The position numbers were made by a program, and so were the translations under genes. From positions 434,001 to 498,000 of the forward strand of contig NZ_JAAQPI010000003.1 of assembly GCF_011683955.1 (NCBI RefSeq): a stretch of DNA of 64,000 bases, in the 5' to 3' direction. This document shows positions 31,062-63,012 of the stretch, piece after piece (the stretch's first letter is position 1; every line of letters begins with the position of its first letter). The notes beneath the pieces were generated by a model. That model did no database searches. It had not been told where the DNA came from and saw only the letters and a list, made by a program, of their open reading frames with translations. The stretch comes from Pseudomaricurvus alkylphenolicus. GTDB lineage: Bacteria; Pseudomonadota; Gammaproteobacteria; Pseudomonadales; Cellvibrionaceae.

Positions 31062-31430
<369 letters not shown>

Positions 31431-44886: not shown

Positions 44887-44890
44887 AATT

Positions 44891-45086
44891 GAGGCACAAA
44901 ACCCAGCGCACCTCGATGCAAAGGTGGCTGGGCGTTTCGTTTTCAGAGCATTAAAGAGGGCGCCGAAAGAGCCAAAAAGACCGGCGTTTTTTGCCGGGCT
45001 TTTTGGTGACTGAGGGTAGGCCGGAGGGCCGACCGACCGCTCTGAAAACGGAACGCCCAGCCGCCGATTGAGGCACCCAACCCGAC
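44891..45086. repeat. Palindromic intergenic element, copy 1
   Basis: Outer arms at 44926-44949 and 45039-45062 (24 bp each, starting GGCTGGGCG and ending CGCCCAGCC) pair with one mismatch. The centre has CCAAAAAG (44972-44979), CCGGC (44981-44985), a T-rich loop, GCCGG (44993-44997) and CTTTTTGG (44999-45006). This inner unit reads as an intrinsic terminator on both strands. GAGGCAC short repeats stand at both ends (44891 and 45070). A 64-bp central block is identical in copy 2 at 62746-62968. Confidence 0.85.
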
Positions 45087-45147
45087 GCCTTCCCAGATTC
45101 GGGCAAGTGCCTACTGTTGAAACCCGCCACATCGTGGCCAATTAAAC

Positions 45148-45179
45148 GGCGGATTACGCCGCTTCGCGACTAATCCGCC
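45148..45179. repeat. REP-like palindrome, copy B
   Basis: GGCGGATTA (45148-45156) and TAATCCGCC (45171-45179) are perfect inverse complements with a GC-rich CGCTTCG-type loop, followed by CTAC as in copy A. The G/C pairs differ from copy A in a matching way (GGTGG/CCACC against GGCGG/CCGCC). Confidence 0.7.
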
Positions 45180-45249
45180 CTACGAAATCGGTGCAACCAC
45201 CTTAATTAAGTGCCATCCGAGTCTGATCCCGGCTCTGCCGCAACAACCA

Positions 45250-45277
45250 TCGAAATGCCCCTCTCCTCTGCTATAAT
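45250..45277 (+). promoter_or_regulatory. Promoter of the enoyl-CoA hydratase gene
   Basis: A perfect TATAAT at 45272-45277 lies 31 bases upstream of the start codon. The -35 is weak (TCGAAA at 45250-45255, 16-base spacer). The strong -10 supports a start site at about 45284. Confidence 0.5.
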
Positions 45278-45308
45278 CCGCCTCCGATACAACCCCTCGG
45301 AGCCCAAA

Positions 45309-46070
45309 ATGCCAGACACCAGCGTTCTACTTACCACCGAAGGCACCATCGCCACCCTCACCCTTAACATCCCCGAACGCCACAACTCCCTGGCCGGCCC
45401 GCAAATCGACCTGATCAGACAATACCTCGACCAAATCGAAGCCAACCCCGAACTCAGAGTCCTGATCGTCACCGGCGCCGGCGAAAAAACCTTCTGCTCC
45501 GGCGCCGCCCTCGACGAACTCGGCTCTGGCTCCATCAGCGGCGAACTCTTCGCCGACATGACCGACCACCTGGCCGCACTGCCCATCCCCACCATCTGCG
45601 CCTTCAACGGCAGCGCCTACGGTGGCGGCTCCGAAATCGGTCTCGCCTGCGACTTTCGCATCGGCATCAATGGCATGCGCCTGTTTGTACCACCCGCACG
45701 TATTGGACTTTGCTATCCGGTAAATGGCATCCAGCGATTCGTCACCACCCTCGGCATCAACACCGCCAAACGCCTGCTTATCGCCAGCGAAGAATTCGAC
45801 GCCCAAGAACTCAAAAACGTCGGCTACCTGACCCACCTGGTTGAGCGAGACCAACTCCAAGACACCGTTCGCCACCTGGCCGAACGCATCGCCGGCTACG
45901 CCCCACTGGCCGTCAAAGCCATGAAAAATATCTGCAACCACAGTGCCCTCGGCGACCTCAACCTCGACGCCGCCAACGCCATCGCTCAACACTGCAACAA
46001 CTCAGAAGATTTGAAAGAAGGATTTCGCTCCGTCAGCGAAAAGCGCAAACCGGTTTTTCACGGACGCTAG
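45309..46070 (+). CDS. Enoyl-CoA hydratase/isomerase family protein
   Basis: A 253-residue crotonase-fold protein. The oxyanion-hole segments are CSGAALDEL (about residues 63-71) and GSAYGGGSEIGLACDFRI, the second keeping the Glu expected in hydratases. The start ATG at 45309 is preceded by CGGAG. It converges with the AraC-type regulator (8 bases between stops) that ends a fatty-acyl degradation operon, so it probably takes part in the same beta-oxidation-like route. Other crotonase activities, such as isomerase, cannot be excluded. Confidence 0.85.
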   Translation: MPDTSVLLTTEGTIATLTLNIPERHNSLAGPQIDLIRQYLDQIEANPELRVLIVTGAGEKTFCSGAALDELGSGSISGELFADMTDHLAALPIPTICAFNGSAYGGGSEIGLACDFRIGINGMRLFVPPARIGLCYPVNGIQRFVTTLGINTAKRLLIASEEFDAQELKNVGYLTHLVERDQLQDTVRHLAERIAGYAPLAVKAMKNICNHSALGDLNLDAANAIAQHCNNSEDLKEGFRSVSEKRKPVFHGR

Positions 46071-46078
46071 CAAGTCTC

Positions 46079-47107
46079 TCAGGTATCAGAACGAGCTCGA
46101 TACTGGGCCGGGCTGACACCGGTCCACTGCTTAAACGCCCGGGTAAAAGACGCGGGTTCGACAAAACCCACCAACTGACCGATATCGGCTACCGGCAGAT
46201 CCTCATTGATCAGCTTATCCACGGCGATATCCCGCCGCAGCAAATCCTTGATTGCCTGATAACTCGTATTTTCAGCCTGCAGCTTGCGACGCAACGTCTG
46301 AGGGCTCACACATAACTCCGAAGCCACAGTAACAAAATCCGGGAAGCCCCGCCCCTCCTTCTGCTGCTTCAGCGCCATACCCTTGATACGGGTGGTATAA
46401 CTGTTATCGGTACCGGACATCACCATCAACTGCGCAGGCGCCGACTCCAACAGCACCTTCATTTCCTCAGAAGAGCGCACCAGCGGACTGGACAAATGTT
46501 TAAGATCAAACGCAAACCCGCAGCGCTGTTGATCGAAATGATGTTCACAATTAAACAGATCCCGATAATGCTGATAGTGGGAGGGTTTGCTATAAGCAAA
46601 AAAACACTGGGTCGGGTGTATTCTTGTACCCGTAATCCAACAGAAAAGCCGATGCGACGCCACCAGCAGAAACTCTATGAGAAAGTGATCCGGATCGTTA
46701 CGGGCGTCTACCAAATCACAATACCAGCGAACCTCTGAATCCGTGATTTCGTATTCCATCCGCACGTCGTCGCGTGTGGAGCGATAAAAGCGCTGATACT
46801 CCTTCAGTAATGCACGAAGCGTATCAAAATGAAGAACATAACGAACCATTAAGGCGAACAGACCCGGCTTGCAGCGCTCCGCGCCCATGCCAAGAAATTC
46901 GTCATCCATCAAATGCCAACAGCGCTTGACCAAGCCTACGTATTGGGCAGGCTCGAGTACCCCATCGGTGGCCACAACCACTTGCAGTGGCAGCTTGGCC
47001 TCGCGGCATACCTGCTCAAAATCATGCCCGGCATCGGCCAACACCTGCCTGAACACACGCGCATAATGGCTGGGAATGGTAATGCGTTGATCGAAATTGA
47101 GTTCCAT
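46079..47107 (-). CDS. AraC-family transcriptional regulator
   Basis: A 342-residue regulator with an N-terminal ligand domain of the type seen in OruR/ArgR-like AraC proteins (about residues 10-190), and a C-terminal double helix-turn-helix (about 235-335). The latter includes RRDIAVDKLINEDLPVADIG and FVEPASFTRAFKQWTGVSP. ATG at 47107 is chosen; an ATG seven codons earlier is also possible and neither has a strong ribosome-binding site. It is the last gene of the thiolase-MaoC-MaoC-acyl-CoA dehydrogenase operon and probably regulates it through the direct repeats at 50590-50623. Confidence 0.88.
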   Translation of the reverse strand: MELNFDQRITIPSHYARVFRQVLADAGHDFEQVCREAKLPLQVVVATDGVLEPAQYVGLVKRCWHLMDDEFLGMGAERCKPGLFALMVRYVLHFDTLRALLKEYQRFYRSTRDDVRMEYEITDSEVRWYCDLVDARNDPDHFLIEFLLVASHRLFCWITGTRIHPTQCFFAYSKPSHYQHYRDLFNCEHHFDQQRCGFAFDLKHLSSPLVRSSEEMKVLLESAPAQLMVMSGTDNSYTTRIKGMALKQQKEGRGFPDFVTVASELCVSPQTLRRKLQAENTSYQAIKDLLRRDIAVDKLINEDLPVADIGQLVGFVEPASFTRAFKQWTGVSPAQYRARSDT

Positions 47108-47183
47108 ACCGGGATTCCCAAGGGCCATACAATTGCAAAATTCACATTATTGTAAGCCCTGACAGGAAAAACAACAGTGGAAC

Positions 47184-48335
47184 CTAGGCACTCAACACGG
47201 AGCGCGAAATCAGCTCCTTCATAATCTCCGAGGTGCCACCGTAGATACGTTGGATACGCGCATCCACAAACGCCCGCGACACCCCGTATTCGCGCATGTA
47301 GCCATAACCGCCATGTAACTGCAGACAACCGTCAGCAACACGATTCTGCATTTCTGTGGTCGACAGTTTGGCCATACTGACCGTTGCCACATCGAGAGTG
47401 CCTTCGATAAAGCTGCGTTTGCATTCTTCCGTAAACGCCTTGTTCACCCGCACATCCGTGGCCATCTCTGCCATCTTGAACTTGGTATTCTGAAGCTGGG
47501 CGATAGGCGCACCAAATGCCTGACGCTCGTTCACATAGGCAACCGTCTCATCCAGAATCCCTTCAGCCGCTGCGACTGCCGAAATCGCCAACGACAACCG
47601 CTCACGCTGCAGCTCACCCATCAACACCGCAAAACCGGCATCCAACTGCCCCAGAATAGCGGAAGCGGGAACCCTGACGTCCTCAAAAAACAACTCAGAA
47701 GTGTCACTGGCGTGAAGCCCGATCTTCTCCAGATTGCGGCCACGACTGAAACCAGGAGTGTCGGAATCCACCAGAAACAGTGTGGTTCCCTTGGCACCGG
47801 GCACATCCAAATTGGTTTTGGCCACGACAACGACGACATCACCGTGCTGACCGTTGGTGATAAAGGTCTTGCTACCGTTAATAATGTAATCATCACCATC
47901 ACGCTTGGCCGTAGTGCGAATACCCTGCAAATCGCTGCCGGCACCTGGCTCCGTCATGGCCACAGCGCCGATACATTCACCACTGACCATCCTGGGCAGA
48001 TATTTCTGTTTTTGCTCCTCGGTTCCGTTATTGAGGATATAGTGAGCCACGATATCTGAGTGGACAATCATGGGGCCGCCCAGGGCACCGCAGTTGGAAC
48101 GACAGAACTCTTCCGCGACCACCATGGAAAACTCATAGTTGCTGCCATAGCCACCGTACTCCTCAGGAACATCCACCGCCAAAAAGCCCTGTTCACCCAG
48201 CTGATTCCAGACCTCTCTGGGAAAGATCTCAGCTTTTTCCCAGCCTTCGTAGTGGGGTAATATCTTGTCCTGGATATATCGTTTGACATTATCGCGAAAC
48301 AGTTGCAGTTCCGATCGGTCGGCAAATTGAGACAT
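47184..48335 (-). CDS. Acyl-CoA dehydrogenase
   Basis: An FAD-dependent enzyme of 383 residues that oxidises acyl-CoA to enoyl-CoA. FAD/substrate motifs are AMTEPGAGSD and GSKTFITNG. The C-terminal motif is YGGTSEIMKEL. The usual catalytic Glu position in YEGT is Gly here, as in the long-chain and isovaleryl branches, where the base comes from another helix. ATG at 48335 follows GGGAGGAA, a strong site that decides the start over ATG 48350. It is preceded by the MaoC gene (24-base gap). Confidence 0.92.
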   Translation of the reverse strand: MSQFADRSELQLFRDNVKRYIQDKILPHYEGWEKAEIFPREVWNQLGEQGFLAVDVPEEYGGYGSNYEFSMVVAEEFCRSNCGALGGPMIVHSDIVAHYILNNGTEEQKQKYLPRMVSGECIGAVAMTEPGAGSDLQGIRTTAKRDGDDYIINGSKTFITNGQHGDVVVVVAKTNLDVPGAKGTTLFLVDSDTPGFSRGRNLEKIGLHASDTSELFFEDVRVPASAILGQLDAGFAVLMGELQRERLSLAISAVAAAEGILDETVAYVNERQAFGAPIAQLQNTKFKMAEMATDVRVNKAFTEECKRSFIEGTLDVATVSMAKLSTTEMQNRVADGCLQLHGGYGYMREYGVSRAFVDARIQRIYGGTSEIMKELISRSVLSA

Positions 48336-48359
48336 GGTGATTCCTCCCATCAGATTCGC

Positions 48360-48779
48360 TTAGGCGTTCACTGCAACCAGTGCTTCACCCACCAGAGTGA
48401 TTTCACCGGTAGCCTTGACGGCTTGAATTTCGCAGCGCGCCAGGGTTTCACCCTCTTGCTCCAGCAACTCAACCACCTTGCCACTGCAGGTAATCGCATC
48501 CTGCAGGTTAGTAATGGCCGCGAAGCGGTTACTGAACTTGCGCAGTTTTGACTGGGGCTGCCAACGGGTCAGCATACGACCGAGGTAGGCCATCGATAAC
48601 ATGCCGTGGGCAAAGACATCATCCATACCTGCCTGTTTGGCAAAATCGATATCGATATGGATGGGGTTGTGATCGCCGGAGGCGCCGGCAAACAGGGCCA
48701 GCGTTGTCCGGGTAATCGGGGGTAATTCCAGGGCCGGGATCTCGGTACCGACTTTCACTTCGGTGTTAATCTCTGACAT
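48360..48779 (-). CDS. MaoC-fold dehydratase
   Basis: A 139-residue hot-dog-fold protein with the hydratase-2 motif: ASGDHNPIHID (catalytic Asp and His) and VFAHGMLSMAYLGR. It would hydrate an enoyl-CoA with R stereochemistry. It lies 18 bases after the other MaoC-like gene, and in many actinobacterial and marine operons such pairs form a heterodimer, one subunit carrying the catalytic residues. This one carries them. Confidence 0.88.
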   Translation of the reverse strand: MSEINTEVKVGTEIPALELPPITRTTLALFAGASGDHNPIHIDIDFAKQAGMDDVFAHGMLSMAYLGRMLTRWQPQSKLRKFSNRFAAITNLQDAITCSGKVVELLEQEGETLARCEIQAVKATGEITLVGEALVAVNA

Positions 48780-48797
48780 AAATCTTCTCCCGACAAC

Positions 48798-49238
48798 TCA
48801 GTTGCGATAAACGATGCTCTGCGTGGAACGAACCACGAGTTCACCGTCCTGATTGGTAAAGGTGACTTCCATTACGACGAATTCCAGAGCTCCGCCCTTT
48901 TTGTCAAACATGTCTTTGATGGAAGCCTGACAAGTAATGGTGTCGCCGGCACAGATCTGGCCAAAGTACTCAAAAGTCTGATCACCGTGCAGAATGCGAC
49001 CGATATCCATGTCCAGTAACTGCAGGAATGGCAGAAACTCGGGCGCCTCCAGATCAATGGAAAATGGATAAGATGGCGGCGCCGGAATATTGCGGTAACC
49101 GGCATCGCGAGCCGCAGATTCTTCGAAGTAAATGGGGTCCGTTTCGCCGATGGCCTTGGCGAAAAAGCGCAGCTTGCCTTTTTCTACCTCTACCGTATGA
49201 GGTTCAAAGGTATGGCCGATAAAACTGCGATCAAGCAT
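48798..49238 (-). CDS. MaoC N-terminal-domain protein, probable partner subunit
   Basis: A 146-residue hot-dog-fold protein related to the N-terminal MaoC dehydratase domain (FIGHTFEPHTVEVEKGKLRFFAKAIGETDPIYFEESAA). It lacks the D..NP.H catalytic motif of its neighbour, so it probably forms the non-catalytic half of a heteromeric hydratase. ATG at 49238 is chosen because AGGAG lies about 8 bases upstream; the upstream in-frame extension is rejected. It is co-transcribed with the thiolase and the second MaoC gene. Confidence 0.85.
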   Translation of the reverse strand: MLDRSFIGHTFEPHTVEVEKGKLRFFAKAIGETDPIYFEESAARDAGYRNIPAPPSYPFSIDLEAPEFLPFLQLLDMDIGRILHGDQTFEYFGQICAGDTITCQASIKDMFDKKGGALEFVVMEVTFTNQDGELVVRSTQSIVYRN

Positions 49239-49353
49239 GATGTGGTTCTCCTGGCAATTATTCAGAGCGCAGAAAGCCCCGCGCTTGTCCGACAAGGACA
49301 ACCGTTGCTGAAAAGCGGGGGCAGATTTCTGTTTACGTAGTGCGGGTTGGCCT

Positions 49354-50526
49354 TTAGGAAGCCTTGTACATGGTCACCACAGCGGCGCCACCCAGACCCA
49401 GATTATGCTGCAGTGCAATGCGGGCGCCTTCCACCTGGCGTTGTTCCGCCGTGCCGCGCAATTGATTGACCAGCTCATAACACTGAGCCAGACCGGTTGC
49501 CCCCAGGGGGTGTCCCTTGGACATCAGGCCACCGGACGGATTCACCACAAACTTGCCGCCATAGGTGTTGTCGCCATCGGCGACAAAGCGAGTGGCCTCA
49601 CCTTCACCACAAAGACCCAGTCCTTCGTAGGTGATGACCTCGTTGGTGGTAAAACAGTCGTGCAACTCCACCACCTGCACATCCTCGGGGCCGATACCGG
49701 CTTCGTCATAGACCTTGCGGGCCGCACGGTGAGTCATATCCGCACCGACAAGCTTGATGGGGTCCACCCAACTGTCTGGGGTATCGGTGGTCATCGCCTG
49801 ACCCACAATCTCCACCCCGTTGCTGATACCGTGTTTTTTGGCAAAAGCGTCACTGACAACAACCGCAGCACCGGCACCACACGTAGGAGGGCAGCACATA
49901 AAGCGGGTCAGGTAATCCATAAATACCACTGGCGCGTCCAGGACTTCCTGCTCAGTCAGGGGGGTATTCAGCAGCGAATAAGGGTTGTTGAGCGCGTGAT
50001 TGCGGGTTTTGACGGAGACCTTGGCGAACAGGTCAGAGGTGGCTCCGTACTTTTCCATATAGTAGTGACCGGCTGCACCAAAACAACGCAGGGCCAGCGG
50101 CGCCTGAGGATAATCCTTTTCATCCAGGATATTCATAAAACGATCGAAAGGCCCTTCACGATCGTCCCAGTGGGAACCCAGTGCGCCGGGCTGCATTTCT
50201 TCAAAACCAAACGCCAACGCACACTCGACCGACCCGCTGGCCACCGCCTGGCGGGCCAGAAACAGCGCCGTGGAACCGGTGGAACAGTTGTTATTGACAT
50301 TCACCACCGGAATGCCGGTCTGGAAGGCATCATACAGGGCATGTTGGCCACAGGTGGAATCACCGTAGACGTAGCCGGCAAACGCCTGCTCGATGTCCGA
50401 GGGCTGGATGCCCGCCTCTTTCACCGCGCCTAGAATGGCCTTGGAAGCCATGACGCGATAGGGTTCGGACTGGCCTGGCTTGGCAAATTTGACCATGTCC
50501 ACGCCGGCGACGATTGCTTTTGACAT
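49354..50526 (-). CDS. SCP-x type thiolase / lipid-transfer protein
   Basis: A 390-residue thiolase-superfamily protein of the SCP2-thiolase branch. The nucleophilic Cys lies in NNNCSTGSTAL, the second catalytic region in HDCFTTNEV, and His in GHPLGATG. These proteins cleave or form branched-chain and steroid-like acyl-CoA. It is the first gene of the operon thiolase-MaoC-MaoC-acyl-CoA dehydrogenase-AraC. Together these make a beta-oxidation set without the usual FadB, so the substrate may be unusual (inference). Confidence 0.9.
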   Translation of the reverse strand: MSKAIVAGVDMVKFAKPGQSEPYRVMASKAILGAVKEAGIQPSDIEQAFAGYVYGDSTCGQHALYDAFQTGIPVVNVNNNCSTGSTALFLARQAVASGSVECALAFGFEEMQPGALGSHWDDREGPFDRFMNILDEKDYPQAPLALRCFGAAGHYYMEKYGATSDLFAKVSVKTRNHALNNPYSLLNTPLTEQEVLDAPVVFMDYLTRFMCCPPTCGAGAAVVVSDAFAKKHGISNGVEIVGQAMTTDTPDSWVDPIKLVGADMTHRAARKVYDEAGIGPEDVQVVELHDCFTTNEVITYEGLGLCGEGEATRFVADGDNTYGGKFVVNPSGGLMSKGHPLGATGLAQCYELVNQLRGTAEQRQVEGARIALQHNLGLGGAAVVTMYKAS

Positions 50527-50566
50527 TGAAGTTCTCCCTGGGCACTGAGGTTTTGGACGATACTGT

Positions 50567-50623
50567 CTATTAGGCGAGTACTGTGTTTTAAAACCAGTAC
50601 TATGTCCTAAAACCAGTACTATG
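50567..50623 (-). promoter_or_regulatory. Direct-repeat operator and promoter of the thiolase operon
   Basis: On the plus strand AAAACCAGTACTATG occurs at 50590-50604 and again at 50609-50623 (19-bp period). AGTACTG at about 50577-50583 forms an inverted partner to the proximal copy. On the minus strand the proximal repeat overlaps the expected -35 (GGTTTT, 17 bases from TAATAG at 50572-50567). Two direct repeats with the near one on the -35 is the usual AraC-activator arrangement. Confidence 0.6.
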
Positions 50624-50680
50624 CGCGTCCCGGTGCCTGATCGGAATGATCAGATGCCACAAGCGAATTGTCGAAAAGAA

Positions 50681-51550
50681 TCAGCCCCTATGTTCCTGTT
50701 GCTCTAGGGCCCACTGGTAGAGCGCCTTCTTCTTCAACCCGGTGATCTCGGCCCCGATCTGACTGGCCTGCTTTACAGAGAGTGATTCCAACAAGATAGT
50801 CATAATGCGTGCCGCTTCGGCATCCAGTGTTTGTTCTGCGGCCTTATCCTGCCCGCGCACCATCACCACCATCTCGCCCTTGCGCTGGTTGGGATCGGCC
50901 GCCACAAAAGCCTGCAGTTCCTCAAGAGTACCACCGCGGATGGTCTCAAAGGTCTTGCTGATCTCCCGCGCCAGCACCGCCTCTCGGGAAGCCCCAAAGG
51001 TGGCACCCATATCCTTGAGGCAATCCTCAATACGATGAGGCGCCTCGTAGAAAATCAGTGTTCGGCTCTCTGCAGCCAATGGTTGCAGTCGATTGAGGCG
51101 CTGGCCGGTCTTGGGGGGCAGAAAACCCTCAAAGGAAAACCGGTCAGAGGGCAGACCAGAAGCACTGAGCGCAGCAATCAGTGCACAGGCGCCCGGTATT
51201 GGTATGACCCTTATCCCCGCCTGTCGGGCGCTGCGCACCAAGCGGTAGCCGGGATCAGAGACCAGAGGTGTGCCTGCGTCCGAAATCAGCGCCAGGTTCT
51301 GGCCCTGTTGCAATCGCTCCACTAAAGACTGCACCTGGCGCTCATCGGAATGATCGTGGTAGGCCACCAGGGGCGTACGAATCTGGAAATGGTCCATCAA
51401 ACGACTACTGTGGCGGGTATCTTCGGCGGCAATCAGGTCTACCGTTTGTAGAACCTCAACCGCTCGCGGTACCATATCGCCCAGATTGCCGATGGGGGTG
51501 GCAACCACGTAGAGTGCGGGTTCGTTCCCCGGAGTGGATGGCTGTGTCAT
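50681..51550 (-). CDS. rsmI: 16S rRNA (cytidine1402-2'-O)-methyltransferase RsmI
   Basis: RsmI methylates the 2'-O of C1402, the same nucleotide that RsmH (present at 24762) modifies at N4. The 289-residue product has YVVATPIGNLGD, EDTRHSSRLMDHF, ISDAGTPLVSDPG, PGACALIAALSASG and EAPHR motifs, all typical. ATG at 51550. It is divergent from lpoA, the standard arrangement in gammaproteobacteria. Confidence 0.96.
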   Translation of the reverse strand: MTQPSTPGNEPALYVVATPIGNLGDMVPRAVEVLQTVDLIAAEDTRHSSRLMDHFQIRTPLVAYHDHSDERQVQSLVERLQQGQNLALISDAGTPLVSDPGYRLVRSARQAGIRVIPIPGACALIAALSASGLPSDRFSFEGFLPPKTGQRLNRLQPLAAESRTLIFYEAPHRIEDCLKDMGATFGASREAVLAREISKTFETIRGGTLEELQAFVAADPNQRKGEMVVMVRGQDKAAEQTLDAEAARIMTILLESLSVKQASQIGAEITGLKKKALYQWALEQQEHRG

Positions 51551-51598
51551 AACAGAAATTCAGTCTTGGCTAATGTAATTGATTTTGGACACCGCGCT

Positions 51599-53865: not shown

Positions 53866-53921
53866 CATTGATGCCTGAAGCGCCTGCGGCCACCAAAGCA
53901 AACATAACCCGAATTTACTGA

Positions 53922-55150
<1,229 letters not shown>

Positions 55151-55188
55151 GACTTTATCCGGCGGCCACTAGTTTCGGATTCACGACA

Positions 55189-57291
55189 CTAAAGACTGAT
55201 CGCTACATTGGGCTTGGCGCTGCTGTTTAGTGCCAACTGCGGCTGGCACAGAATCAACTGACCCGCCCCTGCACCGGCATCCAGCAGCGAACGCTGGATT
55301 GACACGCTGCGCTGTCTACCCAGTTCCAGCAGCTGTTGATGCTGCTGCTCTGTCAATTTCCAGTCTTTTTCAGGCGCAGATGCCAAACCACTGACCGACA
55401 GCGCATCCGCTGCGGTGAGCTCTGGACAAAAGCTCAGACTGATCTGAGGCTTGGCCGCCAAGAGACTGGCCAGCTGCGACAGGCGTTCGTTGTGGCTGCC
55501 ATCGGAGCGGGTTGAACCGGCCTGAAAATACAGGGGGTCGAACCGCAACTTGGTAGCCGACTTCACCACGGCTCCGGCGATATCCACCAGTCCATAGGGC
55601 GTGTAGTAATTGATTACCGCGGTGGTCAGGGCCTTGCGAGCCACCGTGGCGTAAAGGTCCCGCAGGGAAAAGTCTGGAGCATCCACATTCCCTTTTATAG
55701 GCAACTCCAATTCGATATTGTCATCGCTGTCGCGCAGCAGGTTCAACGCCAAGCCAACAGGAATATCTTCAGCAGCGGATTCCTCTTGCGGTTGTTTCGC
55801 CTCGTTCACAACCGGCTTTTCGGGCGGCGCCTGCAGGTAAAATTTGCTCAGCTTGATGTTGGTTTTGACATCCAAAATATTGTCGGCAACCGCGATTTTG
55901 CTATGTGAAGCGACCTGACCTCGCTCAATCTGGAAGCCACTTGCCTGTTCCACATAGGGCGAAAAGGGCAACACATCCAAGGCTTCGAGTCCTCCTTCCA
56001 GTACCAGATTGAGCTGTTGCTTGAATGGCCACAGCTCTCCCTGCAAGAAGAAGCGTCCCGCTTCATTGATTTGCGTGTCCAGGCTCACCGGCGTCGGCAT
56101 CTCAGCCTGCTCCGAATCCAGAGAACCCACCTGTATGGCAATATTGCCAAGACGCTGCTGTTGCGCAGGCTCCAATCCCTCGTCCAGCCACACCACTTCA
56201 GAAGCACCGCCGATTTGTGCAGATTGCAGCTGCAACCTCAAGGTGCCGGGCTCTTTATCCCCATCCCCAGCCTCCGTTTTCTCGGCAGCGGTCGTGTTCG
56301 ATTGAGTATTGTCCTGCCACAGTGCCAATTGTTGCTGCAATCCTTCAATCGCCTTCAGCGCGGGTAAGGCCTCACTACTATCCCGATGACCGGCTAGCTG
56401 CAGCCGCTGCAGTGTCAGGTTGCCCAATGTCAGGCTTTGCCCCATATTCATGGCAGCGCGATCCAGACTGATCGACTGCAGCTGCCCGGCAAAAGGAAAT
56501 TGCGCCGATAAGTACGCCGTCTCGCTGCGCTCAAGCAGACCGAACCCTGTCAGACCAAAGCTTTGCAACTCCAGTCTGTCTGGTCCCATCTGCAGATCTT
56601 TAAACTGCAACTCCTTGAACTTAAGCAGCCCCTGATCCTGCAATTTATCTGTGACTTCCCAGCCGGAAAGTGCAACGCCGGGGATTTTTAACTGCAGGGG
56701 CGACAGCCCCAGCACCTGCAATCCTTGTTCAAGCTTCAAACCTTCAAAGCCTGCACACAAATGGCTGCGGTCTTTACCACTCTCATTGACTAACGCACAG
56801 AGGGCCCAGTGTTCCAGCTCCAGATTTCGGATCTCCACACGCCATTCGGCCAACGCATTGGAGTCCTCTTGAGGTTGAGGCGGGGTAGTGGAATCGGCTT
56901 GCGCTTGGGGATCAATGCCACCAATTCGTAAACGGCCATCGTGGCGTTGCACATCCAGGTACAGTCCCTTGACACTGAGGCTCTCAATGATCAACTGGCG
57001 TTTCCATAGAGGCGCTATGGCTATATTGACTTTGAGTTCGTCCAGATCCAGTTTGCGCCCCTGCCCATCTCGGGTACTGAGCCCGCCGAGGGTAAAGACA
57101 CCGGCACCGGGCGAGAGGGAAACATGCTCCAATTGCGCCGCAATACCCTGAGATCGAAACCAGTCCAGCAGCAGAAATCGACCCGCGAGCGGAGCCAGCG
57201 ACAACGCCAGCAGAAACACCAGCACCAGACACAGCACTGCCCAACCCTGATATTTGAGAAACCGCTTCAGACGCTGAGAGCGAATCGCCAT
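55189..57291 (-). CDS. AsmA-like DUF748 protein
   Basis: A 700-residue envelope protein with one N-terminal helix (about residues 13-37) and a long periplasmic part of the AsmA/DUF748 type. Seen: LDLDELKVNIAIAPLWKRQLIIESLSVKGLYLDVQR, a Gln/Glu-rich low-complexity stretch, then LRDLYATVARKALTTAVINYYTPYGLVDIAG and LRFDPLYFQAGS, which are conserved in DUF748. AsmA-like proteins are thought to bridge phospholipid transport. It converges on dolP; its own role is not known. Confidence 0.83.
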   Translation of the reverse strand: MAIRSQRLKRFLKYQGWAVLCLVLVFLLALSLAPLAGRFLLLDWFRSQGIAAQLEHVSLSPGAGVFTLGGLSTRDGQGRKLDLDELKVNIAIAPLWKRQLIIESLSVKGLYLDVQRHDGRLRIGGIDPQAQADSTTPPQPQEDSNALAEWRVEIRNLELEHWALCALVNESGKDRSHLCAGFEGLKLEQGLQVLGLSPLQLKIPGVALSGWEVTDKLQDQGLLKFKELQFKDLQMGPDRLELQSFGLTGFGLLERSETAYLSAQFPFAGQLQSISLDRAAMNMGQSLTLGNLTLQRLQLAGHRDSSEALPALKAIEGLQQQLALWQDNTQSNTTAAEKTEAGDGDKEPGTLRLQLQSAQIGGASEVVWLDEGLEPAQQQRLGNIAIQVGSLDSEQAEMPTPVSLDTQINEAGRFFLQGELWPFKQQLNLVLEGGLEALDVLPFSPYVEQASGFQIERGQVASHSKIAVADNILDVKTNIKLSKFYLQAPPEKPVVNEAKQPQEESAAEDIPVGLALNLLRDSDDNIELELPIKGNVDAPDFSLRDLYATVARKALTTAVINYYTPYGLVDIAGAVVKSATKLRFDPLYFQAGSTRSDGSHNERLSQLASLLAAKPQISLSFCPELTAADALSVSGLASAPEKDWKLTEQQHQQLLELGRQRSVSIQRSLLDAGAGAGQLILCQPQLALNSSAKPNVAISL

Positions 57292-57423
57292 ATTGACCTC
57301 TTCCTTGCCTATACCTCTGGCGTGTCACTTTAGGTGATTCCCGTCGATGCGTCCATTTATGAACTAAGCTGAAAGCCACAAACCAACAAACCCTGTTCCC
57401 CCACCTGCAAATGAGGCAGCGCG

Positions 57424-59076
57424 ATGAAAGCATCAGACCTGATGGTGAAATGCCTGGAAGAAGAAGGCATCGAATATATCTTTGGTGTTCCCGGTGAGGA
57501 AAACGCTGACTTTATGATGTCGCTGGAGCAGTCAGAGTCGATTCGTTTTGTATTGACACGGCATGAACAGGGTGCGGCGTTTATGGCTGAGATCTACGGC
57601 CGCCTGACCGGCAACCCCGCCGGCTGCCTTGGCACCCTCGGTCCCGGTGCCACCAATTTGATTACCGGCGTGGCGGACTCCAATATGGACCGCGCGCCCA
57701 TGCTCGTCCTGACCGGGCAGGGGGCATCCACCCGACTGCACAAGGAATCCCACCAGGTGATGGATGTCGTGGATATGTTTAAGCCGGTGACGAAATGGGC
57801 AACCACCGTCTGGCACCCGGAAAACATTCCCGAGATTGTGCGCAAGGCCGTGCGCCTGGCGCGTACCGAAAAGCCGGGCGCCGTGCATATCGAACTGCCG
57901 GAGGATATCGCCAAACTGCCCTGTGACAAATCACCTTTGCCGGTCCGCAAGTTCCGTCGTGCAGTGCCGGCCGACAAAATTATGGACATGGCCTTCGAAC
58001 GGATTGGCGCAGCCAAACGTCCACTGATCATCGCCGGCAACGGCTGTATACGCCGCCGGGCCAGCAAACAATTGCGCATCCTCTGTGAAAAAACCGGTAT
58101 CGGCGTTATCAGCACCTTTATGGCCAAGGGCTGCGTGGACATGGACGCCCCCTATTGCCTCTACACCATTGGCCTGGGCGCCAAAGACATTCCCGCCTGT
58201 GCGGTGGATGCCGCCGACCTGATCATCACCCTGGGCTACGACATGGTGGAATACCATCCCAAGCTCTGGAACGAAGGCCGCTCCAAAGACGTTCTGCACA
58301 TCGACTTCCTGCCGGCGGAGATCGACGAACACTACCACCCCGAGATCGAAGTGGTGGGCGATCTGGCCCATTCACTGTGGATGCTGAACGAGCGGATAGA
58401 TGCCAGCGATGGGCTCAAGTTCGATCTGGAACAGCAAGCTGCGGTCAGACGGGATATGACCGAAGAATTAGAGAGACACGCCAAGGACGATACCGAAAGC
58501 AGTATTCGTCCCCAGAAGGTGCTCTGGGACGCGCGCCAATTGATGGCACCTGAAGACATCCTGTTGTCGGATGTGGGCGCCCACAAAATGTGGATCGCGC
58601 GCCACTATCAATGCCACGAGCCCAACACCTGCCTGATTCCCAACGGCTTTTGTTCGATGGGATTCGCCCTGCCCGGCGCTATCGCCGCCAGTCTGGTTTA
58701 CCCGGACAGGCGTATTCTGGGCATCTGTGGCGACGGGGGTTTTCTGATGAATATGCAGGAAATGGAAACCGCACGCCGGCTTAACTGCAAACTGACCATA
58801 ATGGTGTGGGAAGACGGTGGATACGGATTGATCGGCTGGAAGCAAAACAACGAATTTGGCCGACAGACCGACCTGGCTTTTGGCAACCCCGATTGGGTCG
58901 CCCTGGCTCAGGCTTTTGGCTGGCACGGACACAAGATCGACAGCGCCAAAGAGCTCAGCCCGGCGTTGCGACAAGCCTTGGATGAAGACGGCCCGAGCCT
59001 GTTGGTGCTGCCGATAGATTACCGCGAAAATCTGGAGCTTACGCGCCGCCTGGGTGAAATGACCTGCCCAATTTGA
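57424..59076 (+). CDS. Thiamine-diphosphate enzyme, acetolactate synthase-like
   Basis: A 550-residue TPP enzyme of the acetolactate synthase/AlsS type, which condenses two pyruvate to acetolactate. The TPP-activating Glu48 (RHEQGAAF) and GDG at residues 436-438 begin the TPP/Mg motif. The asparagine end of that motif is Glu-Asp (VWEDGGYG), so the usual NN is missing. There is no adjacent small regulatory subunit gene, as for catabolic AlsS types. Related proteins (sulfoacetaldehyde acetyltransferase, oxalyl-CoA decarboxylase) cannot be excluded. It converges with an Lrp-type gene that is divergent from a decarboxylase. Confidence 0.82.
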   Translation: MKASDLMVKCLEEEGIEYIFGVPGEENADFMMSLEQSESIRFVLTRHEQGAAFMAEIYGRLTGNPAGCLGTLGPGATNLITGVADSNMDRAPMLVLTGQGASTRLHKESHQVMDVVDMFKPVTKWATTVWHPENIPEIVRKAVRLARTEKPGAVHIELPEDIAKLPCDKSPLPVRKFRRAVPADKIMDMAFERIGAAKRPLIIAGNGCIRRRASKQLRILCEKTGIGVISTFMAKGCVDMDAPYCLYTIGLGAKDIPACAVDAADLIITLGYDMVEYHPKLWNEGRSKDVLHIDFLPAEIDEHYHPEIEVVGDLAHSLWMLNERIDASDGLKFDLEQQAAVRRDMTEELERHAKDDTESSIRPQKVLWDARQLMAPEDILLSDVGAHKMWIARHYQCHEPNTCLIPNGFCSMGFALPGAIAASLVYPDRRILGICGDGGFLMNMQEMETARRLNCKLTIMVWEDGGYGLIGWKQNNEFGRQTDLAFGNPDWVALAQAFGWHGHKIDSAKELSPALRQALDEDGPSLLVLPIDYRENLELTRRLGEMTCPI

Positions 59077-59097
59077 AGGGCGGTTTTTTGCTGAATA

Positions 59098-59532
59098 TCA
59101 GCGGGAGAACTTCTGCGACAGCAACACTGAACTGTGGCCACGATTGACCCCTTTAATCTGGGTAATACGATCCATCGCCTGGTCCAGTTCGCGGGTGCTG
59201 TTGGCCCGCAACTCGGCAACCAGATCATATTCCCCACTGATGGAATGGAGCGTTCGAATCTCGTCGATCTTCTCCAATGCCCTTACTACCGGTCCAATCA
59301 TCTTCTGATCGGTGGCGATCAGCATATGTGCACCGATCTGCCGCTCGGTGTAATCCCCGTGTAACCGCACGGTATAACCCTGAATCACCTTTTGCTGCTC
59401 CAGCCGCTGCATATGACTCTGCACCGTCAAACGGCTGGCCCCCAGGGCTCTGGCCAGATCGGCAACACTGACACGGGCATCTTCTGTCAGCAACCGCAGC
59501 AGCTTTTGATCGAATTCGCTGAGATTCTGCAT
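59098..59532 (-). CDS. Lrp/AsnC family transcriptional regulator
   Basis: A 144-residue Lrp-type regulator with an N-terminal winged helix (FDQKLLRLLTEDARVSVADLARALGASRLTVQSHMQRLEQQKVI) and a C-terminal RAM ligand/oligomer domain (HSISGEYDLVAELRANSTRELDQAM). It is divergent from a fold-III amino acid decarboxylase with a 111-base AT-rich gap. This points to amino-acid-dependent control of that gene. Confidence 0.9.
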   Translation of the reverse strand: MQNLSEFDQKLLRLLTEDARVSVADLARALGASRLTVQSHMQRLEQQKVIQGYTVRLHGDYTERQIGAHMLIATDQKMIGPVVRALEKIDEIRTLHSISGEYDLVAELRANSTRELDQAMDRITQIKGVNRGHSSVLLSQKFSR

Positions 59533-59643
59533 AATTGATCACTTTCTATAATTGATTTGCCATTTTATATAATTATGACATCAACTTTATAAAGTATGAA
59601 TATACCAAGTGTATAGCCAACCTCCTAACCTATCGGCAATAAC
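59533..59643. promoter_or_regulatory. AT-rich divergent control region
   Basis: This 111-base gap between the Lrp-type and decarboxylase genes is much more AT-rich than its surroundings. It holds TATAAT at 59568-59573 and several short self-complementary AT blocks. Lrp-family proteins prefer such sites. I cannot assign exact -35 elements. Confidence 0.4.
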
Positions 59644-60783
59644 ATGAACTTCCAAGAGACCATTGTCGTGAATATGCCCGCCAAATCCCCAGAGAACCTG
59701 CAACCCGTCCAGCACCAAGATTACTGCGGACCCGAACTGCACATCAGCACCGACAGTCTGACTCATCAGGTACAAGCTTTTCGCAAGGCGCTGCCCGGCA
59801 TTCGCCCCCACTTTGCCGTCAAAGCCAATCCGGCCCCCGAGCTGTTGGCTCACCTGGACGCCCAAGGTGTGGATTTTGAAATCGCCTCGGAAGGTGAACT
59901 GGCACTGATGCAACAACTGGGCATCTGCGGCAAACGCATCATCTTCAGTAACCCCATCAAAACGCCCCGCAGCATCCAACAGGCCGTTAGTTACGGAATC
60001 GAGTGGTACGCCTTCGATTGCCTGGAAGAACTGCAGAGCCTCCAACAGCATGCCCCCGAAGGCCGCTTTGAACTGCGCATCAGCACTGATGGCAAAGGTG
60101 CCGTCTGGCCCCTGAGCCACAAATTTGGCGCCGGCCCTGACGACGCCGAAGCCATCCTGAAATACGCCGCTGAAAACGGACTGCAAGTCCAGGGCGTCAC
60201 CTTCCATGTGGGGTCACAGTGCCTCGACCCGCAGGCGTGGGTGCGCGCCATCGAGCGCAGCCGGGAACTGCTGTCAAGAATGCAAGAACTCGGACTCAAA
60301 CCCGCTCTACTGAACCTGGGAGGTGGATTCCCGTGCCAAACCTCCGCCCACGTGCCCTCCATCAACGCCATCGGCACCGCCATCCTGTCAGCCCTGGAAA
60401 CATTGCCCCAAGGCCTGGAAATCGTGGCCGAACCAGGTCGTTTCCTGGTGGCTCCCGCCGGCACCATTCGCTGCCAGATCATCAATACCACTCTGCGGCA
60501 GGGACGCCCCTGGGCTTTCCTGGATTGCGGTTACTATAATGGTCTGATCGAAATGACCACCGACTTCGGCTTTACCCCTCGGAGCTCCAGGTGCGGCGAT
60601 CTTTGCGACTGGGTCATCGCAGGGCCAACCTGTGACTCCATCGACCACTTCAGTCCCAATTACCAACTGCCTGCTGACAGCCGTGCTGGCGACCTGATCG
60701 AAATCCCCAATATGGGCGCCTACAGTAACGCCTGCGCCGTCAGTTTTAACGGCTTTCCCGGTCCGAGGCTGATTTTCGACTGA
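59644..60783 (+). CDS. Fold-III PLP ornithine/lysine decarboxylase
   Basis: A 379-residue alanine-racemase-fold decarboxylase that would make putrescine or cadaverine. The PLP lysine is Lys60 (FAVKANP). GGGFPCQT and EPGRFLVAP bind the PLP phosphate. The catalytic Cys330 sits in PTCDSIDHF, the eukaryotic-type ODC signature. An in-frame ATG at residue 11 is an alternative start; neither has a clear ribosome-binding site. Beside an Lrp-type regulator, it fits a regulated amine pathway, perhaps supplying or linked to the polyamine island at 34-45 kb. Confidence 0.9.
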   Translation: MNFQETIVVNMPAKSPENLQPVQHQDYCGPELHISTDSLTHQVQAFRKALPGIRPHFAVKANPAPELLAHLDAQGVDFEIASEGELALMQQLGICGKRIIFSNPIKTPRSIQQAVSYGIEWYAFDCLEELQSLQQHAPEGRFELRISTDGKGAVWPLSHKFGAGPDDAEAILKYAAENGLQVQGVTFHVGSQCLDPQAWVRAIERSRELLSRMQELGLKPALLNLGGGFPCQTSAHVPSINAIGTAILSALETLPQGLEIVAEPGRFLVAPAGTIRCQIINTTLRQGRPWAFLDCGYYNGLIEMTTDFGFTPRSSRCGDLCDWVIAGPTCDSIDHFSPNYQLPADSRAGDLIEIPNMGAYSNACAVSFNGFPGPRLIFD

Positions 60784-60969
60784 TCGACACAACAGCCGCC
60801 CCCTCGACTGCGCGAATTTCCAGAATTGTGCTTATACTTATTCGTGAGAGTACCATTCAAGCGTCGTCAAAGTCGGCGCCAGCTCTTTGGTGGGGGCTCT
60901 TCCAATAGGCTGATCCCACCAGAGCGACAGCGTGGCCGCGACGATTGCATACTGCACTGGAGGTAGGTT

Positions 60970-61458
60970 ATGGGCGTTGCGATCACGCTGGAGAATTATC
61001 TCAACACCAAAGCGGTTGACTACGATATTCTCGAACACAAATACAGTGAAGGCTCTTACAACACCGCGCTCTGCGCCCGCGTCCCGGCTGAACGGCTGGT
61101 CAAGGGGGTTGTGTTTCGTGATGAAGACCTGCACTACACCATGGCGGTACTGCCCGCCAGTCACCGGGTGCTGAGACACACCCTAAACCAAATCATGGAC
61201 CGCCGACTCGAACTCGCCGATGAAGAAGAACTGGAAGACATCTTCTTTGACTGTGAGCGAGGCGCCATACCCTGCCTGGGCCAGGCCTACGGCATCAATG
61301 TCATCTGGGACGACGGTCTCGCACAAGGCAACGAAGTCTGGCTGGAAGCCGGAGATCACGAACACCTGATTCACTTCCGGGGTTCGGACTTCAAGCGCCT
61401 GATGCAAGACTTTATGCACGAACGTATCAGCTGCGATCGCAATACGGCCGCCCGCTGA
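60970..61458 (+). CDS. YbaK/EbsC-type aminoacyl-tRNA deacylase-domain protein
   Basis: A 162-residue protein with the YbaK/prolyl-tRNA editing fold: a short lead, then YDILEHKYSEGSYNTALCARVPAERLVKGVVFRDED, MAVLPASHRVL, CERGAIPCLGQAYG and NEVWLEAGDHEHLIHFRG. It may clear mischarged tRNA, but the specific amino acid is not readable. The start ATG has the strong site GGAGGT. It is followed by a clear bidirectional terminator. Confidence 0.82.
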   Translation: MGVAITLENYLNTKAVDYDILEHKYSEGSYNTALCARVPAERLVKGVVFRDEDLHYTMAVLPASHRVLRHTLNQIMDRRLELADEEELEDIFFDCERGAIPCLGQAYGINVIWDDGLAQGNEVWLEAGDHEHLIHFRGSDFKRLMQDFMHERISCDRNTAAR

Positions 61459-61471
61459 CCAACCTCAAGAT

Positions 61472-61501
61472 AAAAAAAAGCCACCGAAAGGTGGCTTTTT
61501 T
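61472..61501. terminator. Bidirectional intrinsic terminator
   Basis: GCCACC (61480-61485), GAAA tetraloop and GGTGGC (61490-61495) with an eight-base A-run before and a six-base T-run after. It would end both the YbaK-domain gene (plus) and the exbD gene (minus). Confidence 0.92.
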
Positions 61502-61525
61502 ATCGCATCCGGGCTACGTCTGAAA

Positions 61526-61942
61526 TCAGGACTCAGGCGGCACCAGGGATACGTTATAGACGTTCGCTTCACGAGCGGCATCGGCAATGGCAACAAACAC
61601 CTTCGAGGTGGAGTTGGCATCGGCCTTGACAACCACAGGCGCCTTGGGGTTCTCGGCGTGCAGACGCTCAATATTCGCCCGTACCGCGCGCACATCCACG
61701 CGACGCTCTTCCATCCAGATCTCATCGTTAGCGGTCACTGTGACCAGGATAGCCGCATTATCTTCCGAGGGAGGTGGTGGGTTTTCCTGACTCTCAGGAA
61801 TGTTCACATCGATACTGGATTCCTTAACAAAGGACGCCGTCACGATAAAGAAAATCAACATGATGAACACCACGTCCAGCATCGGCGTCAGGTCGATATC
61901 GCTGCTATCCTCTTCGGCTCCGCGGCCCTTTCTACGTCTCAC
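61526..61942 (-). CDS. exbD: ExbD/TolR family biopolymer transport protein
   Basis: A 138-residue inner-membrane protein that with ExbB converts proton-motive force into TonB or Tol movement. It has a basic N-tail, one membrane helix beginning with the proton-path Asp (IDLTPMLDVVFIMLIFFIVTASF), and a periplasmic domain. The start is GTG at 61942. No exbB/tolQ or tonB gene is adjacent, which is unusual; see findings. Pro-rich SQENPPPPSED stands after the helix. Confidence 0.9.
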   Translation of the reverse strand: MRRRKGRGAEEDSSDIDLTPMLDVVFIMLIFFIVTASFVKESSIDVNIPESQENPPPPSEDNAAILVTVTANDEIWMEERRVDVRAVRANIERLHAENPKAPVVVKADANSTSKVFVAIADAAREANVYNVSLVPPES

Positions 61943-62208
61943 TATCTAACTACCTCTTTTCAGCACGGCCATCACACCTGGCCTGTCCCTTCGTTATTAA
62001 CTCGCACAACAGGCGGCCCCTCTGTTGGAGACCTGACTGAAGCACAGTGGTTGAGATTGCCTCATCACTCAGGGTCGCCATCTTAACAGCTAATTCCTCA
62101 AGAAACTAACCTTCAGACAACCTCTACACACTTTGTTAAGCTTGCCGCCAAAATCCCCGGTGGCGGTAGCATTCGCCACCACAAACTGTAACCCAAGGTA
62201 ACAAATCC

Positions 62209-62559
62209 ATGAAAATTGACGACTTTTTGGCCACATTACGAAACACACCCGAGAGCGTCCAGTTCGAAGACACCATGGCCGTCATCGCCGCCAACTACCA
62301 ATTCACCCCCACCGCCTTTAGCAACGGCGACCTGCAAAATGCCCCCGATCAGAACCAGGGCTCCTGCAAACTGCTGGCCTTCGCCAAACTCCAACAACTG
62401 AGCCCCGAGGCTACGCTGGCCTGTTTCGGCAAATACTACCGCGAAGACGTGCTCCAGAACCCCGAAGGCAACGACCACCAGAATATTCGCAACTTTATGA
62501 CCACCGGCTGGGAAGGAGTCTCGTTCGAGGGCGAGCCGTTGGCGGCCAACCAGACATAA
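62209..62559 (+). CDS. HopJ-family protein
   Basis: A 116-residue protein of the HopJ family. The family was named after a Pseudomonas type III effector but is widespread in bacteria without that system and has no established function. Typical parts are VQFEDTMAVIAANYQFTPTAF, GSCKLLAFAKLQQLS and YYREDVL. No type III secretion genes are nearby, so a housekeeping role is more likely. Ribosome-binding site CCCAAGGTAAC is weak. Confidence 0.8.
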   Translation: MKIDDFLATLRNTPESVQFEDTMAVIAANYQFTPTAFSNGDLQNAPDQNQGSCKLLAFAKLQQLSPEATLACFGKYYREDVLQNPEGNDHQNIRNFMTTGWEGVSFEGEPLAANQT

Positions 62560-62600
62560 TGTATTCAATAGATTGCCCGATATCAGCCTTCGACGGAACG

Positions 62601-62626
62601 TCGGATTACGGCTTCGCCTAATCCAA
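62601..62626. repeat. REP-like palindrome, copy C
   Basis: TCGGATTA (62601-62608) and TAATCCAA (62619-62626) pair around CGGCTTCGCC with one G-T-type mismatch, followed by CCTAC. Same family as copies A and B. Confidence 0.65.
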
Positions 62627-62745
62627 CCTACATCGATGAAGTCGTTACAAACATAGGGAGTTGCGAAGTAAAGGAGAGTACCCCTACACAGAAATCCAGC
62701 CTTTCCCATGAGGCAAGAAACCCCAAAAGAAACCCCTAAAAGGAA

Positions 62746-62968
62746 GAGGCACCCGACTCCGAGCACTACAGAACCAAGGTGGCTGGGGGTTTCGTTTTCC
62801 GAGCATCAAAGAGGGCGCCGAAAGAGCCAAAAAGACCGGCGTTTTTTGCCGGGCTTTTTGGTGACTGAGGGCAGCCGGGACGGCCGCCCGACCGCTCGGA
62901 AAGCGGAACCCCCAGCCGCCGATTAAGGCACCAAACCCCGAGTCCATAAAAACTCAACGACGCCGCTT
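62746..62968. repeat. Palindromic intergenic element, copy 2
   Basis: Outer arms at 62781-62804 and 62894-62917 (24 bp, starting GGCTGGGGG and ending CCCCCAGCC) pair with two mismatches. Relative to copy 1 the arms carry matched changes on both sides, for example C/G to G/C in GGCTGGGCG/CGCCCAGCC against GGCTGGGGG/CCCCCAGCC. The central terminator-like block is identical to copy 1. GAGGCAC-type short repeats flank it at 62746 and near 62925. Confidence 0.85.
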
Positions 62969-63012
62969 GAGGCACCAAAACCCGAGCCCATAGGAACTCA
63001 ACGACGCCGCTT
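62925..63012. repeat. 44-bp tandem direct repeat at the end of the Ala/Arg-rich gene
   Basis: Units 62925-62968 and 62969-63012 begin AAGGCACC / GAGGCACC and end CGACGCCGCTT, with about five differences. The second unit includes the last codons of the minus-strand gene, so the first looks like a duplication of the gene's 3' end and its downstream flank. Confidence 0.75.

What the first reader, a model, noticed from the sequence alone, without database searches (positions are those of the whole stretch)
44891..63012. Two long palindromic elements with compensatory arm changes
Copies at 44891-45086 and 62746-62968 share a 64-bp identical core and 24-bp outer arms that pair with each other. Where the arms differ between copies, both sides change together, so base pairing has been kept while sequence drifted. 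The core reads as an intrinsic terminator on both strands (CCAAAAAG..CCGGC..GCCGG..CTTTTTGG). This combination points to selection on a folded RNA or on a cruciform, and to a dispersed intergenic element rather than chance. I cannot place it in any family I know by name. The minus-strand frame through it resembles a recurring spurious translation seen in gammaproteobacterial genomes, which suggests many copies exist.
Basis: partly seen in the sequence, partly recalled or inferred. Interest (0 to 1): 0.75.

Follow-up and report, generated by a model that had tools for sequence, protein, structure and literature searches.

The report
Widespread folded hairpin repeat between genes
The two palindromes are copies of a bacterial repeat, present at dozens of places in this genome and in some distant relatives, whose single strand keeps the same elaborate fold while its sequence drifts, probably because the folded strand itself does something.

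Summary
In detail: the two copies share a 64-bp identical block and arm differences are compensated. They are not a lone duplication: this genome has at least 61 full-length copies, none in a called gene, with extensive covariation. The same core, with unrelated but still paired outer helices, occurs in four Pseudoteredinibacter-genus genomes, in 14 further genomes among 390 sampled from the order, and in at least 40 copies in the betaproteobacterium Silvimonas terrae. Rfam shows no such family.

Wobble pairs are strand-specific (G-U 100, A-C 1), against a symmetric cruciform. In this genome 57 of 61 copies have the folding strand on the C-rich side; elsewhere that bias is weak.

The terminator reading is weak: 32 of 61 copies lack the T run. 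Orthologous resident copies keep pairing while diverging. Best reading: a MITE/ERIC-like dispersed element, often at convergent gene ends, whose folded single strand, most likely RNA, is under selection. Transcription and any mobilising enzyme are not shown.

The parts
44923..45065 (+). Copy 1: 143-nt hairpin unit (folding strand is +)
   Evidence: R1 match G000:C34:478923-479065, 165.6 bits; fold of 44885-45095, z -7.0
44923..44949 (+). Copy 1 outer helix, 5' arm (27 nt)
   Evidence: Arm comparison
45039..45065 (+). Copy 1 outer helix, 3' arm (27 nt)
   Evidence: Arm comparison
44953..45016 (+). Copy 1: 64-bp block identical to copy 2 (conserved core)
44972..45006 (+). Copy 1 core hairpin, CCAAAAAG-A-CCGGC-loop-GCCGG-G-CTTTTTGG, with the conserved A.G mismatch
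   Evidence: Sequence; pair counts
45019..45029 (+). Copy 1 small hairpin with GGA triloop (one G.G mismatch in this copy)
   Evidence: Helix 2; position by offset
44889..44904 (+). Copy 1 5' flank motif TTGAGGCACAAAACCC
   Evidence: At least 6 of 8 letters of TGAGGCAC in 44 of 61 copies
45068..45083 (+). Copy 1 3' flank motif TTGAGGCACCCAACCC, directly after the stem
   Evidence: Recurs in nearly all of the 61 listed copies (by eye, not counted)
62778..62920 (+). Copy 2: 143-nt hairpin unit (folding strand is +)
   Evidence: R1 match G000:C34:496778-496920, 166.8 bits; fold of 62760-62950, z -7.9
62778..62804 (+). Copy 2 outer helix, 5' arm
62894..62920 (+). Copy 2 outer helix, 3' arm
62808..62871 (+). 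Copy 2: 64-bp block identical to copy 1
62874..62884 (+). Copy 2 small hairpin with GGA triloop
   Evidence: Position by offset from copy 1; differences
62745..62752 (+). Copy 2 5' flank motif (AGAGGCAC)
62923..63009 (+). Copy 2 3' flank: two tandem units, AGGCAC at 62926 and 62970
43489..44886 (+). Neighbour gene of copy 1; its stop codon lies just before the 5' flank motif
   Evidence: Home-made gene caller; ORF list
62998..63867 (-). Neighbour gene of copy 2 (its ORF), convergent with the + gene at 62209-62559

Best explanation
A family of dispersed, non-coding intergenic elements, MITE/ERIC-like in lifestyle, with a hairpin of about 140-150 nt and some flanking sequence. The unit of function is one folded strand: an outer helix of free sequence enclosing a conserved core (a GA-rich internal loop, a hairpin with an A.G mismatch and usually a T-rich loop, and a small hairpin with a GGA triloop). 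SHOWN by computation: the family, its spread, the covariation, the strand-specific wobbles, upkeep of pairing in resident orthologous copies, and enrichment between convergent genes in this genome. INFERRED: the strand acts as RNA (read-through from a gene end or its own transcription), where the hairpin closes off, protects or delimits transcript ends or binds a protein through the core; and the copies spread as non-autonomous elements helped in trans.
For: 61 full-length copies in the own genome, 0 of 61 in a called gene; neighbours convergent 24, codirectional 30, divergent 3, incomplete 4, against 7, 34 and 18 in element-free gaps of 150 bp or more in the same loci, some of which overlap (Fisher p 3e-4 and 5e-4). 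Covariation: 27 of 46 pairs with two-sided changes in 30 of the 61 copies; core structure over 29 sequences 95.2% paired, covariation score 0.471 against 0.160 shuffled, 0 of 500 as high. Outer helix, scored without favouring G-U: WC 1494, G-U 100, A-C 1, other 12 in 61 copies; WC 962, G-U 56, A-C 12, other 66 in 41 copies of other families. Orthologous sites in genus g10: 44 of 48 varying pairs stay paired, 23 by double change; with the structure taken from one member only, 129 of 179 in ordered comparisons, or 213 of 286 when two strongly diverged copies are added, against about 30% expected for one random substitution. 15 of 21 sites looked at in other families lie between convergent genes.
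Against: No transcript was seen. No sigma-70-like promoter excess upstream (84 of 100 shuffle sets as high). Among codirectional neighbours orientation to the genes is mixed (13 sense, 17 antisense), so a simple 3'-UTR role does not fit all copies. In g10 convergent neighbours are not in excess (3 of 16 sites). The strong strand bias in this genome (57 of 61) is not predicted by a purely transcript-level role. Two of five measures did not exceed shuffles clearly (pairs with two-sided change 11, 39 of 500 as high; further pair types 24, 227 of 500). Of the broken pairs, A-C is the commonest kind (23 of 50). One carrier (L192) has no long outer helix in its fold or by arm matching. No clean empty site, target duplication or mobilising gene was found.
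Confidence: 0.5

Rival explanations
1. The folded strand acts as single-stranded DNA, at replication forks or as the substrate of a single-strand transposase (REP/RAYT or IS200/IS605-like), not as RNA.
For: 57 of 61 copies have the folding strand on the C-rich strand, also between convergent genes (21 of 24); of 14 contigs with two or more copies 11 have a single orientation, for example 7 of 7 on C2 and on C45. Same direction but weak elsewhere: 28 of 36 copies in g10, many of them orthologs, 14 of 20 in Silvimonas, 12 of 18 one-orientation sites in other families. Close inverted pairs recall REP doublets (9 of 20 regions L203-L222, several of them picked because one search showed a pair). 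IS608-type elements use the lagging-strand template (PMC6006769, passages).
Against: By general knowledge the C-rich strand is the leading-strand template, so the exposed lagging template would carry the worse-folding strand. Y1 transposase genes do not track carriers: 12 of 15 carriers and 7 of 11 non-carriers have one; absent in carriers G147, G704 and G721, present in 4 of 5 non-carrying congeners. The unit is far longer than a REP.
Confidence: 0.27
2. Double-stranded DNA palindrome: arms are kept complementary by template-switch correction at a quasi-palindrome, or by selection for a cruciform, with no role for one strand.
For: Some ortholog changes are runs of compensated bases, as template switching would give (6 double changes in L077/L078, 10 in L086/L092/L093). 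Quasi-palindromes are template-switch hotspots (PMC7202029, start of abstract in the listing).
Against: Both predict equal A-C and G-U; observed 1 and 100, 12 and 56. Neither explains unpaired core letters shared with a betaproteobacterium.
Confidence: 0.1
3. Bidirectional intrinsic terminator for convergent genes, selected for termination.
For: A-tract/stem/T-tract form; enrichment between convergent genes; 29 of 61 copies with five T after the stem.
Against: 32 of 61 lack the five T, and in the 30-copy alignment the partners change to keep pairing; termination in the core would leave the 3' arm, whose pairing is conserved, untranscribed.
Confidence: 0.1
4. Neutral relics of old MITEs with no present role.
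For: Tandem duplications, internally deleted copies and patchy spread are typical of MITEs; stem sites vary about as much as loop sites (5.7% and 6.2%).
Against: Resident orthologs keep pairing well beyond chance.
Confidence: 0.08

Closest known systems
ERIC/IRU (enterobacterial intergenic repeats, about 127 bp)
   Same: Dispersed imperfect palindromes in intergenic regions, MITE-like (recalled; ERIC is in the reference list seen in PMC3110155).
   Different: No sequence match in the E. coli collection for the window element or the Silvimonas member. Here the outer helix is free in sequence and a core is conserved over a wide range.
MITE-like repeats R0, R1, R2, R6 of Pseudomonas fluorescens (PMC2718517, passages)
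   Same: Inverted repeats round a core, intergenic, tail-to-tail gene bias.
   Different: For R0 and R2 the arms are identical to those of insertion sequences; no covariation or one-strand fold is claimed in the passages seen. Their sequences were not compared here.
REP/BIME/REPIN with RAYT transposase (PMC6006769, passages)
   Same: Hairpins in many copies; inverted doublets in some lineages.
   Different: Much longer unit; no match between carriers and Y1 transposase genes.
BRE, betaproteobacterial repeat element (PMC3110155, passages)
   Same: Repeat of about 90 bp in Betaproteobacteria, usually intergenic, part of an expressed small-RNA region in Bordetella.
   Different: Its sequence was not held, so relation to the Silvimonas member could not be tested.

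Membership tests
Any Rfam 15 family | Covariance-model match at the gathering score | tested here: not met
   No element matched in the window or in 15 relatives' loci (the one match there, 6S, lies beside an element); lax searches gave only scores far below the gathering scores
REP/RAYT | Associated Y1 (TnpA-REP) gene in carriers | tested here: not met
   PF01797 absent in carriers G147, G704, G721 and present in 7 of 11 non-carriers
REP/RAYT | Short hairpin with 5' GTAG-type tetranucleotide | tested here: not met
   143-nt unit; no such conserved tetranucleotide at the 5' edge (by eye)
MITE | Terminal inverted repeats and many dispersed copies | tested here: met
MITE | Target-site duplication at an empty site | tested here: inconclusive
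   G147 lacks the element at one shared site but flanks are only 80-82% alike
MITE | Parent transposon with the same ends | not tested
   No search beyond PF01797
ERIC/IRU | Sequence similarity to ERIC copies of E. coli | tested here: not met
   No match in the E. coli collection
Intrinsic terminator | Uninterrupted U-tract after the hairpin | tested here: not met
   Absent in 32 of 61 copies
Structured RNA | Covariation beyond shuffled controls | tested here: met
   (three of five measures beyond all 500 shuffles, two not clearly)
Structured RNA | Transcription | not testable with these tools
   No expression data; no promoter excess

The most novel reading that the evidence does not exclude
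A previously unnamed mobile element, spread over distant proteobacteria, whose folded single strand is both its replicating or inserting form and a selected resident structure, inserted or retained in a fixed orientation to the replication fork: a bacterial analogue of a short retroelement, or a fork-oriented single-strand element, with its own unknown enzyme.
Probability: 0.17. Interest if true: 0.88.

Novelty: new variant of a known kind. Interest (0 to 1): 0.63.

Why it matters
Dispersed palindromes are often treated as MITE debris. Here resident copies keep a strand-specific fold across species, and the same core recurs in gamma- and betaproteobacteria on unrelated outer helices. That makes the question whether such repeats are functional RNAs, single-strand DNA substrates or debris directly testable with dozens of natural variants, and it may expose a new enzyme that spreads them.

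Tried and rejected
Single recent duplication: rejected (61 copies). Bidirectional terminator as the selected feature: weakened. Symmetric cruciform: disfavoured. RAYT as carrier: does not track presence. Own promoter upstream: no excess. Pairing of the 5' GGTGT with the 3' GCACC flank: not kept when the 5' side changes (read). L035 and L037 from the pattern scan look like coding chance matches; L032, L033, L075 and L076 look like ordinary hairpins; none was used in a model or a count. Plasmids: no match for the window element; 1 record for the Silvimonas unit and 13 with a longer query, mostly a neighbouring hairpin. No phage match for the Silvimonas unit; no viral-contig match to the pattern. 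Phylum sample: G000 only, 1 of 398; class sample: G000 and G962, 2 of 369. Nine paper searches listed nothing that describes this element; passages were read in PMC2718517, PMC3110155 and PMC6006769 only, the rest as listings.

Rows dropped: A1 used 30 of 61 copies; A3 used 29 of the 30 rows printed (L144 left out), and one search's script missed 16 copies of this genome; searches left out L140 and L141, orthologous by flanks but with wholly different, still paired arms (added); one search used 41 of 56 matches (10 duplicates and 5 weak ones dropped); one search used 36 of 37 copies; one search used 20 of 40; one of 14 loci (L199) was not folded because of a coordinate slip. Limits: gene calls are from a home-made caller; GC skew is local (2.9-19 kb) and some flanks overlap; the genome is a draft; order, class and phylum searches scored 10-11 candidates a genome, so copy numbers there are lower bounds and misses are possible; RNAalifold chose the structure, hence the stricter repeats. 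Promoter hexamers are recalled.
Full report
CHECK OF THE OBSERVATION. The two copies are as described. The identical block is 64 bp (44953-45016, 62808-62871), the hairpin units are 143 bp and alike at 132 positions, and two outer pairs (three with the small hairpin, by my reading) change on both sides between the copies. Both fold at about -100 kcal/mol, with 0 of 200 shuffles as stable. No Rfam family matches them.

COPY NUMBER. A covariance model from 30 copies finds 61 full-length copies on the modelled strand of the own genome (8.88 Mb, 70 contigs), plus a few short or partial ones; many further rows are the weak reverse-strand echo of the same palindromes. All 61 were examined for context: none lies in a called gene; 24 are between convergent genes, 30 between codirectional ones (13 sense, 17 antisense to the element), 3 between divergent ones, and 4 have one neighbour missing. 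Element-free gaps of at least 150 bp in the same loci, some of which overlap, are 7 convergent, 34 codirectional and 18 divergent; Fisher p is 3e-4 for convergent and 5e-4 for divergent. A subfamily is alike over 345-385 bp at about 95-96% in its closest pairs and 84-93% in others, so the shared unit can be longer than the hairpin.

STRUCTURE. 27 of 46 consensus pairs have two-sided changes. In genus g10 the outer helix is another sequence altogether, still paired. With Silvimonas terrae added, a core structure of 17 pairs over 29 sequences is 95.2% paired, with covariation score 0.471 against 0.160 for shuffles and a sharp loss on sliding; two other measures, the number of pairs with two-sided change (11 against 8.8, 39 of 500 shuffles as high) and further pair types (24 against 23.3, 227 of 500), do not stand out. 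Invariant letters include those of an A.G mismatch in the core stem and of the GGA triloop.

SPREAD. By DNA comparison 4 of 58 genomes match, the own included; the others are G014 (two diverged copies) and G024 and G031 (ordinary hairpins); 0 of 5 congeners. The model R1 matches 7 of 144 family genomes: the own, four of genus g10 and two weak ones of g4 that look like ordinary hairpins; genomes without a match were mostly not listed, so I cannot say that every g10 genome has it. A pattern scan of the species-genome collection returned 6 stretches: Pseudoteredinibacter twice, a Cellvibrionaceae metagenome bin, Silvimonas terrae, and two chance-like hits. Silvimonas (Betaproteobacteria) has at least 40 copies, 40 of 187 candidates being scored. 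With the core model R2, 15 of 390 genomes sampled from the order match, the own included, in 10 of 142 genera and seven families. One locus from each of the other 14 was taken; 13 were folded; 12 show an outer helix of unrelated sequence round the same core, and L192 does not.

ONE STRAND. If a cruciform were selected, A-C and G-U would be equally common. Scored without favouring either, the outer helices of the 61 copies hold G-U 100 and A-C 1. The copies share ancestry (42 of the 100 are at one position), but the G-U fall in 17 position-and-type classes and the A-C in one. In 41 copies from other families it is 56 to 12. So the modelled strand is the one that folds for a purpose, as RNA or as single-stranded DNA.

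UPKEEP AT RESIDENT SITES. Twelve orthologous sites among three g10 genomes (29 copies; flanks mostly 89-96% alike) show 48 varying pairs: 23 changed on both sides and stay paired, 21 changed on one side and stay paired, 4 broken. With the structure taken from one member only, 129 of 179 varying cells in ordered comparisons stay paired; adding L140 and L141, whose arms differ wholly from their orthologs, 213 of 286. One random substitution would keep about 30%. Of the 50 broken cells 23 are A-C, so such changes do arise. Some double changes come in runs, so template switching may help to supply them; it does not explain the wobble asymmetry.

REPLICATION STRAND. In 57 of 61 copies the flanks have negative GC skew on the folding strand, whatever the gene context: 17 of 17 antisense, 12 of 13 sense, 21 of 24 convergent, 3 of 3 divergent, 4 of 4 incomplete. 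Of 14 contigs with two or more copies, 11 have one orientation; C11 switches once along its length. Elsewhere the same direction is weaker: 28 of 36 copies in g10, many of them orthologs, 14 of 20 in Silvimonas, 12 of 18 one-orientation sites in other families. That the C-rich strand is the lagging one is general knowledge; origin and terminus were not mapped.

TERMINATOR. The letters after the core stem are TTTTT in 29 of 61 copies and something else in 32. A terminator would also stop transcription before the conserved 3' arm.

CONTEXT ELSEWHERE. 15 of 21 sites in other families are convergent, and one lies in a called gene; in g10 it is 3 of 16. So the convergent preference is not uniform.

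MOBILITY. Signs of past movement: patchy spread, high copy number, a tandem triplication in one genome where two relatives have a full and an internally deleted copy, one element apparently replaced by another at a shared site, and close inverted pairs in 9 of 20 regions, several chosen for that reason. No target duplication or clean empty site was obtained, and Y1 transposases do not track carriers.

VERDICT. A real and broad family of folded intergenic repeats, not described in the listings and passages seen. The kind (dispersed palindromic repeat) is known; the strand-specific selected fold with a conserved core on a free outer helix, its span from gamma- to betaproteobacteria and the strand-oriented copies in this genome make it a new variant. 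The mechanism remains open between RNA and single-stranded DNA.

Noticed in passing
L157:1119-1303 (G148:C31): A different, highly palindromic element of about 185 bp sits in the loop of the core hairpin, at the site orthologous to L077/L078.
   Followed up: partly
window 44889-44904, 45068-45083, 62745-62752, 62923-63009: TTGAGGCAC-type direct repeats flank the hairpin on both sides; the 3' unit is tandemly repeated in copy 2 and in several other copies.
   Followed up: partly
G000 contigs, 61 copies: Element orientation follows local GC skew in 57 of 61 copies.
   Followed up: yes
L159-L178 (Silvimonas terrae): The core is followed by a second hairpin built on TTACTTTCTTTG / CAAAGAAAGTGA, pieces of which also occur in Caballeronia, Paraburkholderia and other plasmid records; upstream of many copies lie runs of TGTTGC/CGTTGC hexamers.
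   Followed up: partly
L203-L208, L213, L216, L219: Close inverted pairs of the element, 5' ends facing each other, starts 200-370 bp apart.
   Followed up: partly
L082, L073, L141; L085, L136, L140: At two sites with orthologous flanks one genome carries an element with wholly different, still paired arms.
   Followed up: partly
L190:1711-1888: 6S RNA lies about 110 bp downstream of one copy in G738.
   Followed up: no
window 31063-31429 (-): RNase P RNA class A gene, ordinary.
   Followed up: no
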